Shown piece by piece: positions 10,663-13,123 of a stretch of DNA of 52,442 nt. Position 1 is the stretch's first letter; the number at the start of each line of letters is the position of its first letter. The notes under the pieces are model-generated. The model made no database searches and had not been told where the DNA came from. It saw nothing but the letters and a program-made list of their open reading frames with translations. The position numbers were made by a program, and so were the translations under genes. This DNA comes from Actinomycetes bacterium (GTDB lineage Bacteria; Actinomycetota; Actinomycetes; Propionibacteriales; Propionibacteriaceae): contig JAJZQV010000011.1 in NCBI GenBank assembly GCA_021803025.1, positions 1 to 52,442 of the forward strand, in the 5' to 3' direction.

Positions 10663-11286
10663 ATGTCCGAAACCACGTCCAAGCGCAGGATCTCGCTTCC
10701 GCTCATCCTGGCAGGAGGCGTCTCGTCGCTCGTCCTTGCGCTCGGGATGTCGCCGACCTTCTCCGCGTTCACCGCCTCGATCCAGAGCGGCGCGAACCTC
10801 GCCAGTGCGGGAACCCTGACGATGGAGGAGACCTCGGGAAGCGTGACCTGCCGGAGCACCGACGGCGCGAATGGGCTGAGCGGGAACTCCGCCACCTGCG
10901 CCACGATCAACAAGTACGGCGGCACGGGCGCCCTCCTCACGCCGGGCGGTGCGGCGAACGTCACGACCGTGACGATCGCGAACACCGGCACCGTGGCGGC
11001 CACCAGCTTCAGCCTGACCCCCGGCGCCTGCGCGCAGAGCGCCCTCGGCACGCCCGTCGGCAACGCGACCGACCTCTGCACCAAGCTCCACGTCAAGATC
11101 ACGACGGGCACCACGACGGTGTACGAAGGCAGCGCCAGCGCCCTCACGACGCCCGTCGCCCTCACGCCGCTCGCCAACGGGGCGTCGGCCAGCTACACCT
11201 TCGCGGTCTCGCTCGACAGCAGCGCCGACAACACGTACCAGGGCCTGCAGGCTTCGCAGCCGCTCACCTGGACGTTCCAGTCCTGA
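10663..11286 (+). CDS. SipW-dependent-type secreted surface protein
   Basis: A 207-residue exported protein. The N-terminus KRRISLPLILAGGVSSLVLAL, then FSAFTASIQSGANLASAGTL, is the long hydrophobic signal of TasA/camelysin-like proteins, which are cut by SipW-type signal peptidases; the mature part is Thr/Ala/Gly rich, predicted beta-sandwich, with several cysteines (SVTCRS, ATCATI, GACAQS, LCTKL). ATG 10663 has GGAAGG about seven bases before it. The next gene is a SipW-like peptidase, which fits as the processing enzyme. A fibre, matrix or surface-layer role is inferred from the family. Confidence 0.8.
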   Translation: MSETTSKRRISLPLILAGGVSSLVLALGMSPTFSAFTASIQSGANLASAGTLTMEETSGSVTCRSTDGANGLSGNSATCATINKYGGTGALLTPGGAANVTTVTIANTGTVAATSFSLTPGACAQSALGTPVGNATDLCTKLHVKITTGTTTVYEGSASALTTPVALTPLANGASASYTFAVSLDSSADNTYQGLQASQPLTWTFQS

Positions 11287-11300
11287 GATCGGGCGCTCTC

Positions 11301-11336
11301 GCCGGGCCTGCGTGACGAACGGTCACGGGGCCCGGC
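11301..11336 (+). terminator. hairpin terminator after the secreted protein gene
   Basis: GCCGGGCC pairs with GGCCCGGC and an inner CGTGAC pairs with GTCACG around a five-base loop. No T-run follows, as is common in high-GC actinobacteria. It may only attenuate, since the signal peptidase gene follows in the same direction. Confidence 0.65.
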
Positions 11337-11446
11337 GGAGACGCTGACCAGTCCGGCCCCGCGCGTGACCTCGGCCGGATGGCTCTGACGCGCCATCGCG
11401 CGTCCTCACCAGTGCGTCAGACCCGACCTCTCTGGGGGTGCTACCT

Positions 11447-13123
11447 GTGACCACGAAGACGTGGAAGATCACTGCCGCGGCGAGCCTCGTGCTCCTCGCC
11501 GGCGCTCTCGTCGCGCTGTTCGGCGCGGGTTTCCACTTCTACATCGTCCAGACCCCGAGCATGGGGACGACAGCTCCGGTCGGAACCCTCGTCGCGGTGC
11601 ATGCGAAGGACTCGTACGCGGTCGGCGACGTCATCTCGTACGCGCGCAACGGTCGTACCTACACGCACCGCATCGTCGCGGCCTCGGCCGCCGGCTTCAC
11701 CACGCAGGGCGACATCAACGGCACCGCGGACGCGCTTCCCGTCAGGGCGGCGGAGATCGTCGGTGCCGTCACCTTCTACGGCAGGCACCTCGGGTTTCTC
11801 GTCGAGGCCCTGCCCTGGCTCGTGATCGGGGGGGTGGCCGTGTACATCCTGTCGCGGCGACCGTGGGTGGGCCGTGCGCTGAGGTGGCCGTTCCGGCTCG
11901 TCGGCTGGTCGCTCGTCGCCAGCCTCGCCGCGCTGTGGATCCGGCCGTGGGTGAACATGACGATGACTGGCTACGTCGCGCAGGCTGACGGCGTACGGAT
12001 GCACCTCGTCAACACCGGGATCCTCCCGCTCAAGGTGATGGGTACGGTGCTCGCCAGCGGGCAGGACGCGGTCGTGACGCAGTCGGCTGAAGACAGCGTC
12101 GGCCACTACAGCGTCACCCCGCACCTCGCGCTGAGCTTCTGGCACTTCGCCCTGCTGCTCATGATCTGCCTCACGCCCTTGCTGGCGGCGCTGATCATCC
12201 GCGGGGACCAGCCGTCGACGGTGTCGGATGCCGCGGCGGCCCCGACGCGCCTCCCGGCTCGCGTTCGCCGCCTCGCACCCGTGGCCCTCATCGTCTCAGC
12301 GAGCATCGTCGCGGCCGCTCTCGTGCTGCAGATGAGCACCAACGCCGCGTTCGCGGCCTCGATCTCGAACAGCACCGACACGGTCAGGGTGCGCACCTGG
12401 GTCACGTGCCAGGCCGCGGAGACGACCACGCCGAACGTCTGGCTCGTCTGGGGCCTGACGACCGCGGGCAGCCAGACGGACCTCACCGGCAACGGCAACT
12501 CCGGCACGATGAGGACCGTCAAGGGCGGCACGTCGGCGACGGTGAACACCAGCTCGCCGTGTCCCCAGGACGCGCAGGGATCGCTCATGTTCAACGGCGC
12601 GACGTGCGTGTTCACGCCGGGAACGGTGGCAGGCTCCGAGACGTACTCGGAGGAGATCTGGTTCCGTACCTCCGGCGCGTCGCTCAACGGCAAGCTCATG
12701 GGCTTCGCCACCGGCACGCCGATAAGGGGCAAGCAGCAGTACGCCGACCGCCATCTCTACCTCGACCCCACAGGACGCGTCCTCTTCGGCGTCGTCGCCG
12801 GCGGCGCACAGACCGTCATCTCGTCGACGGGAAGCTACACCGACGGCGGCTGGCACCACGTCGTCGCCACCTCCGCGCCGGGAACGGTGTCGCTGTACGT
12901 CGACGGCGCTCTCGCCGCGACGCGCTCGAACCTCGCCACCCAGACCCTGTACAAGGGGGACTGGATGGTGGGCTGCGGACTGCTGACCGGATGGCCGACC
13001 GCGTCGGGGGGCACGGCCGCCTTCCCCGCGTACTACACCGGCAACCTCCGCCTCGCCGCCGTGTACAACGCGACGTTGACGCCCGCCCAGGTCGAGGACC
13101 ACTACCGGGCCGGTCAGGCCTGA
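11447..13123 (+). CDS. SipW-like signal peptidase I fused to a LamG-type domain behind an internal signal sequence
   Basis: 558 residues. The N-terminal part is an ER/SipW-type signal peptidase: a membrane anchor (8-29), catalytic Ser38 in VQTPSMG, His74 in TYTHRIV instead of the bacterial lysine, and Asp89 in TQGDING. More membrane segments follow near residues 120-138, 150-167 and 222-242. At about 275-305 there is another hydrophobic segment ending in NAAFAASISNSTDTVRV, which resembles the signal of SipW substrates, and the rest (about 310-555) is a LamG/concanavalin-like domain with FNGATCVFTPG and GWHHVVATSAPGTVSLYVDG. The GTG at 11447 has GGGGG eight bases upstream; GTG 11438 is an alternative. 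The protein may release its own C-terminal domain. Confidence 0.82.
   Translation: MTTKTWKITAAASLVLLAGALVALFGAGFHFYIVQTPSMGTTAPVGTLVAVHAKDSYAVGDVISYARNGRTYTHRIVAASAAGFTTQGDINGTADALPVRAAEIVGAVTFYGRHLGFLVEALPWLVIGGVAVYILSRRPWVGRALRWPFRLVGWSLVASLAALWIRPWVNMTMTGYVAQADGVRMHLVNTGILPLKVMGTVLASGQDAVVTQSAEDSVGHYSVTPHLALSFWHFALLLMICLTPLLAALIIRGDQPSTVSDAAAAPTRLPARVRRLAPVALIVSASIVAAALVLQMSTNAAFAASISNSTDTVRVRTWVTCQAAETTTPNVWLVWGLTTAGSQTDLTGNGNSGTMRTVKGGTSATVNTSSPCPQDAQGSLMFNGATCVFTPGTVAGSETYSEEIWFRTSGASLNGKLMGFATGTPIRGKQQYADRHLYLDPTGRVLFGVVAGGAQTVISSTGSYTDGGWHHVVATSAPGTVSLYVDGALAATRSNLATQTLYKGDWMVGCGLLTGWPTASGGTAAFPAYYTGNLRLAAVYNATLTPAQVEDHYRAGQA

What the first reader, a model, noticed from the sequence alone, without database searches (positions are those of the whole stretch)
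11447..13123. Signal peptidase fused to a substrate-like LamG domain behind an internal signal sequence
The N-terminal part has the Ser38/His74/Asp89 set of a SipW-type peptidase. After four membrane segments a second hydrophobic stretch ends in NAAFAASISNSTDTVRV, which is like the signal of SipW substrates such as the protein encoded just upstream (FSAFTASIQSGANLASAG), followed by a LamG-like domain. The enzyme could cleave its own chain and release the LamG domain outside the cell. I do not know of a described self-processing case of this kind.
Basis: partly seen in the sequence, partly recalled or inferred. Interest (0 to 1): 0.72.

Follow-up and report, generated by a model that had tools for sequence, protein, structure and literature searches.

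The report
Signal peptidase fused to its substrate
This gene joins a secretion-cutting enzyme to a protein that still carries that kind of enzyme's cut site, so the enzyme probably cuts its own kind to release a lectin-like piece of a surface fibre; this has not been tested at the bench.

Summary
ORF 11447-13123 encodes a 558-aa protein: a SipW/ER-type signal peptidase (S38, H74, D89), four membrane helices, a cytosolic loop, a fifth hydrophobic helix ending in a SipW-type cleavage site, and a LamG domain. Twenty-four such fusions (window plus 23 proteins in 20 named loci) occur in Propionibacteriaceae and allies, Microbacterium and Saccharibacteria; all 24 keep the triad. In Clavibacter, Subtercola, Frondihabitans, Amnibacterium and another genus of the window's family the halves are adjacent genes; in 13 of 15 such loci the LamG gene starts inside the peptidase stop codon (ATGA/GTGA) with its own SipW-type signal peptide. 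So the fusion probably joined an enzyme to its neighbouring substrate. The fusions trace to essentially one old event, yet P3/P1 stay small in 24 of 24 and P1', P2', P4' are kept in 22-23, while the hydrophobic core drifts: the mark of a signal still being cut. The predicted cut is A300|A301. The upstream protein models as a TasA-like fibre subunit and shares its N-terminal strand with the LamG part. Best reading: a peptidase that carries and releases its fibre's minor, TapA-like subunit. Cutting itself, cis versus trans, and the fibre role are inferred, not shown.

The parts
10663..11286 (+). Stand-alone TasA-like fibre subunit (207 aa) with SipW-type signal; predicted cut S34|A35 (T-F-S|A-F)
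   Evidence: AlphaFold pLDDT 77; best match by VIA-align TasA fibre 8aur, Z 9.3, rmsd 2.6, 132 aligned; only clear copy in the genome, next hit E 0.23
11292..11345 (+). Long G+C hairpin between substrate and fusion genes, possible attenuator that lowers expression of the downstream gene (inference)
   Evidence: MFE -57.9 kcal/mol for 11284-11380, z -3.12, 1 of 200 shuffles as good; long hairpins also in L055, L057, L058, L060, L061
11447..13123 (+). SipW-type signal peptidase-LamG fusion gene, 558 aa
11534..11785 (+). Extracytoplasmic catalytic domain, residues 30-113; S38 (11558-11560), H74 (11666-11668), D89 (11711-11713)
   Evidence: profile match to SEC11A/SEC11C
11957..12082 (+). Second extracytoplasmic beta module, residues 171-212, between helices 3 and 4
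   Evidence: the peptidase profile covering it also matches split and peptidase-only relatives end to end
12257..12340 (+). Fifth hydrophobic helix (residues 271-298), the internal signal peptide core
   Evidence: least conserved of the five helices, TM1 close to it
12338..12358 (+). SipW-type cleavage site, residues 298-304 (T-N-A|A-F-A-A), predicted cut A300|A301
   Evidence: compared with the TasA site described in PMC10269814
12347..12382 (+). Donor-strand-like N-terminus of the released part, residues 301-312 (AFAASISNSTDT)
   Evidence: Alternating conservation at P2', P4', P6', P8'; pattern shared with the substrates
12407..13114 (+). LamG (concanavalin A-like) domain, residues 321-556, four invariant cysteines (321, 372, 387, 510)

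Best explanation
The gene encodes a dedicated ER/SipW-type signal peptidase whose C-terminus is one of its own substrates. The chain is inserted in the membrane. The catalytic domain and the LamG part both lie outside, and the fifth helix serves as an internal signal peptide. A SipW-type active site, its own or that of a neighbouring copy, cuts between A300 and A301. This releases a LamG protein that begins AFAASISNSTDT and leaves a working peptidase in the membrane. The same enzyme removes the signal of the TasA-like fibre subunit encoded upstream. The freed LamG protein uses its N-terminal strand, which resembles that of the major subunit, to cap, start or anchor the fibre, as TapA does for TasA. 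Supported by computation: architecture, catalytic residues, conserved site, split relatives with coupled genes, TasA-like fold. Inferred: the cutting itself, its cis or trans character, and the role in the fibre.
For: (1) Catalytic S, H, D in 24 of 24 fusions. (2) Junction of the 24: P3 T/S/A 24, P1 A/S/G 24, P1' A 22, P2' F/L/Y 23, P4' A 23, P6' I/V 24, P8' N 20. The TasA site has the same shape, with W at P2 and F at P2' (PMC10269814). (3) Mean pairwise column identity: hydrophobic core 0.23 (TM1 0.26, TM2-4 0.37-0.46), P1 0.76, P1' 0.84, P4' 0.92, P2 0.08. (4) In 13 of 15 split loci the LamG ORF begins at an ATG/GTG that overlaps the peptidase stop by 4 bases and has its own SipW-type signal. 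(5) The fused LamG domains form one clade (SH-aLRT 99); the fused peptidases form one clade apart from one long-branch row inside it, so the site has been kept since an old fusion. (6) In the window's genome the fusion is the only SipW-type hit; the other hit (19.9 bits) reads as a P-type Lep. In 6 of 9 fusion genomes no further TIGR02228 hit above 25 bits was found. (7) The upstream protein's model matches TasA fibre best in VIA-align, Z 9.3. (8) A TasA-like gene was detected upstream of the fusion in 19 of 20 named fused loci. (9) TapA and TasA share their first residues, and tapA and sipW overlap at stop/start (PMC10151520).
Against: No cleavage data exist. The site also obeys the general -3/-1 rule, so Lep could cut it; 7 of 24 have Leu, not an aromatic, at P2'. 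Three of 24 miss the post hoc motif (L060, L063, L070); L063 has Asn at P1', and L060's junction ranks only sixth by the substrate matrix. Three of 9 fusion genomes have another SipW-type hit (G050, G064, G121). No TasA-like gene was found beside the fusion of L073. The model (pTM 0.48) gave no information that places helix 5 next to the active site. By Foldseek E-value the substrate's first match is a FimA pilus subunit (7.5e-4), TasA second (1.7e-3), and no sequence match to TasA was found in the PDB. LamG is not the Ig fold of TapA. Several genomes are incomplete.
Confidence: 0.62

Rival explanations
1. The fusion is not cut. LamG stays tethered through helix 5 as a surface-display or fibre-anchoring domain of the peptidase, and the signal-like motif is a relic or is kept only for strand pairing.
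For: The protein would still place LamG outside. The P2'-P8' pattern alone could be kept for strand pairing without cutting.
Against: P3 and P1 are small in 24 of 24 although strand pairing would not need this; the hydrophobic core drifts more than helices 2-4, as a signal peptide would. TM1 drifts almost as much.
Confidence: 0.18
2. The internal signal is cut by the housekeeping P-type signal peptidase (Lep), and the fused peptidase acts only on other substrates.
For: The site fits the general -3/-1 rule; a Lep gene is present in the genome; 7 of 24 have Leu at P2'.
Against: E. coli LepB handles aromatic P2' poorly and cleaves the TasA site very inefficiently (PMC10269814); 16 of 24 have F or Y at P2'. 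The catalytic triad and the SipW-type site are kept together in the fusions.
Confidence: 0.12
3. A sub-case of the best reading, listed apart because cis is the bolder claim: cutting is by SipW-type enzymes but strictly in trans, between copies or by a SipW-type paralogue. The fusion only secures equal amounts of enzyme and minor subunit.
For: Split relatives have separate enzyme and substrate. Three of 9 fusion genomes have another SipW-type hit. The peptidase must in any case act in trans on the upstream substrate.
Against: Nothing found excludes it; six genomes show no second enzyme, but another copy of the fusion would do.
Confidence: 0.35
4. Gene-model artefact: two genes joined by a sequencing error, or a decaying peptidase.
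For: The split form exists in relatives with the two ORFs in different frames.
Against: 24 fusions in the window and 20 other named contigs, named Microbacterium isolates among them, with an invariant triad and clustered on both trees.
Confidence: 0.01

Closest known systems
Bacillus subtilis tapA-sipW-tasA system
   Same: Dedicated ER-type peptidase, fibre subunit of TasA fold, cleavage site with aromatic P2', minor subunit whose gene overlaps sipW at stop/start and whose N-terminus resembles that of the major subunit (PMC9674648 and PMC10151520: passages seen; PMC10269814: abstract and introduction read)
   Different: Here the peptidase and the presumed minor subunit are one polypeptide with an internal signal; the passenger is LamG, not Ig; the peptidase has an additional two-helix module with an ectodomain (size of B. 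subtilis SipW recalled); gene order is subunit, then peptidase-LamG
Clostridium perfringens sipW-bsaA
   Same: SipW-dependent secreted fibre protein with accessory secreted proteins in the operon (PMC7395162, passages seen); 3 of 31 substrate homologues touch TIGR04090 at best E 0.017
   Different: SipW is a separate protein there
Self-cleavage of bacterial type I signal peptidases (E. coli Lep, B. subtilis SipS, S. pneumoniae Lep; recalled, from no call)
   Same: A signal peptidase cuts its own kind
   Different: Recalled as loss or regulation of the enzyme, not productive release of a fused passenger at a genuine signal-peptide site
TafC family fimbrial protein NF052521 (NCBIfam)
   Same: Weak match of the LamG end: 7 of 24 fusions at E<=1e-3
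   Different: Far below its cut-off (14.9 against 410 bits for the window, E 0.011); no paper found

Membership tests
ER/SipW-type signal peptidase I | Ser-His-Asp active site in the right order with conserved blocks | tested here: met
   S38, H74, D89 in 24 of 24; profile match to SEC11A/C E 2.3e-4 and 2.9e-4
ER/SipW-type signal peptidase I | TIGR02228 curated cut-off (51.85 bits) | tested here: inconclusive
   Window 40 bits as a protein, below; all 24 fused proteins match at E<=1e-3; fusion copies over the cut-off in 5 of 9 fusion genomes (G006, G030, G048, G121, G131)
ER/SipW-type signal peptidase I | Peptidase activity on a signal peptide | not testable with these tools
   Needs expression and an assay
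SipW-dependent substrate (internal LamG part) | Signal peptide with small P3/P1 and bulky or aromatic P2' | tested here: met
   P3 and P1 24 of 24, P2' F/L/Y 23 of 24; split relatives carry it as an N-terminal signal
LamG / Laminin_G_3 | Pfam gathering score and concanavalin A-like fold | tested here: met
   59.2 against 27.6 bits; 24 of 24 match at E<=1e-3; fold matches
TasA-like fibre subunit (upstream protein) | TasA jelly-roll fold | tested here: met
   VIA-align Z 9.3 to 8aur, next 7.4 to archaeal bundling pilus 7ueg; Foldseek ranks FimA 6erj first (7.5e-4) and 8aur second (1.7e-3)
TasA-like fibre subunit (upstream protein) | Sequence similarity to TasA | tested here: inconclusive
   Profile search of PDB sequences listed no TasA up to E 10
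TasA-like fibre subunit (upstream protein) | Assembly by donor-strand exchange | not testable with these tools
   Needs fibres
TapA (minor subunit) | Mature N-terminus like that of the major subunit | tested here: met
   Shared A-F-x-A-x-I-x-N pattern
TapA (minor subunit) | Ig-fold body | tested here: not met
   Body is LamG; so not a TapA member, at most works like it

The most novel reading that the evidence does not exclude
A cis-acting, self-processing signal peptidase: each enzyme molecule carries its fibre-initiating subunit behind an internal signal peptide, cuts it free once both halves are outside, and so couples one peptidase to one fibre start. This arrangement arose from one translationally coupled gene pair and spread among Actinomycetota and episymbiotic Saccharibacteria.
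Probability: 0.35. Interest if true: 0.82.

Novelty: new variant of a known kind. Interest (0 to 1): 0.64.

Why it matters
If true, a signal peptidase that carries and releases one of its own substrates would be a new way to couple enzyme, minor subunit and fibre start. It would also give a compact experimental system for cis versus trans processing by ER-type peptidases, and would extend the TasA/TapA logic to Actinomycetota and Saccharibacteria. Pfam's S26 model (PF10502) finds the peptidase half in only 2 of 24 fusions at E<=1e-3, so domain tables would tend to list them as LamG proteins only.

Tried and rejected
Cleavage by the AxA rule at A301-F302-A303|A304 was considered and rejected: the would-be P1 (residue 303) is T or V in 13 of 24, S in 3 and A in 8. 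My first reading placed the cut at A301|F302 (column -1/+1). It was corrected to A300|A301 after PMC10269814 showed TasA's W at P2 and F at P2'. My note called G121 a split form; it is one ORF. The 'second place' of L060 was not the junction; recomputed it ranks sixth.

Internal translation start as the source of free LamG: considered from the sequence; the in-frame GTG before helix 5 would leave no positive n-region, so it was not pursued.

Structure matches of LamG to many concanavalin A-like proteins, botulinum binding domains among them, were rejected as a shared common fold with no functional meaning; the first-ranked entries are an arabinanase and its domain 4 (5ho2, 5hon). Phylum-wide scan with the peptidase half: 44 of 396 genomes match at E<=1e-15; besides the window's own genome only G495 matches nearly the whole profile (12-248 of 251, 118.9 bits, 432-aa frame); the other listed places match only its first 120-170 positions; neither was followed up. 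Promoter/terminator scan found nothing. Literature: the listings of ten searches showed no paper on a SipW-LamG or signal peptidase-substrate fusion; the library holds only open-licence papers.

Rows dropped or not counted: 7 of 63 substrate signals (1 too short, 6 scoring too low) were left out of the matrix. L071 and L088 are cut by contig ends. L082, L083, L084, L086, L087 and L089 have a peptidase with no LamG gene found directly downstream (L083, L084, L086 have one upstream). Among 15 split loci, L033 (LamG remnant) and L076 (no overlap) are exceptions. No TasA-like gene was found beside the fusion of L073. The junction motif was written after seeing the sequences. The matrix null was residue shuffling only.

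Full report
What is there. ORF 11447-13123 (+) encodes 558 residues. Residues 24-117 match the archaeal/ER-type signal peptidase family TIGR02228 (E 3.4e-10, below its naming cut-off) and residues 28-109 SipW (3.6e-6); residues 390-549 match Laminin_G_3 (6.8e-16). A profile of the fusions also finds SEC11A and SEC11C of the signal peptidase complex (E 2.3e-4, 2.9e-4). AlphaFold on a 24-sequence alignment (pLDDT 82, pTM 0.48) gives helices 3-26, 115-136, 143-165, 231-250, 271-298, a catalytic domain after helix 1, a small beta module between helices 3 and 4, a low-confidence junction 298-315, and LamG 321-556. With an N-in start, both the active site and LamG are outside; arginines in the loops near 137-145 and 251-275 agree with this (sequence). 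Four cysteines of the LamG part (321, 372, 387, 510) are invariant in 24 of 24, as expected for an exported domain.

Relatives. A search of 147 genomes of the window's family and a scan of named genomes (37 loci) led to fused copies in 20 named loci (23 proteins) plus the window: Propionibacteriaceae and allied Propionibacteriales, Propionicimonas, Microbacterium and Saccharibacteria/TM7. Nine named loci and six loci of another genus of the window's family (five genomes) have the halves as two genes. In 13 of these 15 the LamG start codon overlaps the peptidase stop by four bases, in another frame, and the LamG protein starts with its own signal, for example VPGTWSA|FTAKV or APGTSGA|YSAAI (bar at the alignment anchor; the predicted cut is one residue earlier). 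So the internal helix 5 of the fusion corresponds to a true N-terminal signal peptide.

One old fusion, site kept. On the peptidase tree the fused rows form a supported clade (96/91) broken only by one very long branch inside it, L086; split rows lie outside. On the LamG tree all 24 fused domains are one clade (SH-aLRT 99; quick method). Over this depth P3 is T/S/A and P1 is A/S/G in 24 of 24, P1' Ala in 22, P2' F/L/Y in 23, P4' Ala in 23; three (L060, L063, L070) miss the full motif. The motif, written post hoc, occurs at the junction in 21 of 24 and elsewhere 19 times in 13,573 positions. The hydrophobic core is about as free as TM1 (0.23 and 0.26 mean identity) and freer than TM2-4 (0.43, 0.46, 0.37), while P1, P1' and P4' stand at 0.76, 0.84 and 0.92. 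A matrix made from stand-alone substrates alone ranks the junction first in 22 of 24 fusions, second in L063, sixth in L060; 9 of 24 scores exceed all 960 shuffled proteins. This is what a signal peptide still under selection for cutting would look like.

Which enzyme. TasA of B. subtilis is cut by the ER-type SipW at a site with Trp at P2 and Phe at P2', and E. coli LepB cleaves it very inefficiently (PMC10269814: abstract and introduction read). The window site T-N-A|A-F, the upstream substrate site T-F-S|A-F and the site S-W-A|A-Y in L059 have this shape. The window's genome has this one SipW-type gene and a P-type Lep (the Lep identity is read from its Ser-Lys sequence and a neighbouring ORF that I recognise as ribosomal protein L19). 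Among 9 fusion genomes, 6 show no further hit above 25 bits and 3 do (G050, G064, G121); completeness of four of the nine is only 77-86%. Whether a molecule cuts itself or its neighbour cannot be told from sequence.

What it is for. A TasA-like gene was detected upstream in 19 of 20 named fused loci (a fragment at the contig start in L054; none found in L073) and in the window; in most the gap is under 200 bases. The model of the window's copy matches TasA in its fibre form best by VIA-align (8aur, Z 9.3, rmsd 2.6, 132 residues), then an archaeal bundling pilus (Z 7.4); by Foldseek E-value a FimA subunit comes first and TasA second. In TasA the mature N-terminus (residues 28-38) is the donor strand, and TapA, a minor subunit with a nearly identical N-terminus (AFHDI against AFNDI), is proposed to start the fibre; tapA and sipW overlap at stop/start (PMC9674648 and PMC10151520: passages seen). 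Here the fibre subunit and the LamG part share A-F-x-A-x-I-x-N at the same place, and in the fusions conservation alternates along it (P2' 0.46, P4' 0.92, P6' 0.54, P8' 0.69 against P3' 0.32, P5' 0.20, P7' 0.17, P9' 0.30), as for one face of a strand. I therefore propose that LamG is the TapA-like starter or anchor of the fibre. This step is inference. LamG is not an Ig domain, so it is not a TapA family member.

Novelty. The parts are known; the joining of a signal peptidase to its own substrate behind an internal, still constrained signal did not appear in the listings of the paper searches I made. Self-cleavage of other signal peptidases is known to me from recall only. I rate it a new variant of a known kind.

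Limits. No cleavage data; cis and trans unresolved; the fibre role rests on a fold match and a short shared strand; the null for the matrix was residue shuffling; related sequences are not independent.

Noticed in passing
L035, L040, L049, L050, L051, L019 (for example L040:7097-8545, minus strand): A second peptidase-LamG fusion type in the same family: a short SipW-type peptidase joined to a SipW-type signal (A-x-A-[AG]-[FY], read by eye) and LamG; in five of the six loci small ORFs with YSAYS/YSAFS/FSAK-like signals lie nearby. Its LamG domains do not group with the first type, so probably an independent fusion. The triad motif was found by pattern in 4 of 6; four tested match TIGR02228 just below its cut-off.
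   Followed up: partly
L064, L068, L072, L073: The fusion occurs in Saccharibacteria (TM7), episymbionts of actinobacteria (recalled), as a supported clade inside the fused group, with the TasA-like neighbour found in three of the four: possible transfer between phyla.
   Followed up: partly
L055:5001-8529, L056:4989-8582, L057:5001-8530: Two tandem fusion copies. In L055 and L056 the second copy's peptidase is closest to the window's pair while its LamG groups with copies of other genera (L058-L061, L070): the passenger seems to have been swapped near the junction.
   Followed up: partly
window 11292-11345: Strong hairpin between fibre subunit and fusion genes in the window, L055, L057, L058, L060 and L061, 6 of 9 Propionibacteriales loci folded (not in L059, L065, L070); absent in the Microbacterium and Saccharibacteria loci folded, where the gap is 7-49 bases: possible attenuator setting the major/minor ratio.
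   Followed up: partly
residues 137-250 of the fusion (window 11855-12196): Extra two-helix module with an external beta domain that B. subtilis SipW (recalled, about 190 aa) lacks; present also in peptidases without LamG. Function unknown; may hold the substrate.
   Followed up: no
L058:6819-7463, L060:6798-7433, L061:6958-7563: A second subunit-like gene downstream of the fusion whose signal lacks the usual AFTAS motif.
   Followed up: no
L033, L076: Odd copies: L033 keeps only a LamG remnant behind the peptidase; in L076 the peptidase frame runs on past the usual stop. Described only.
   Followed up: no
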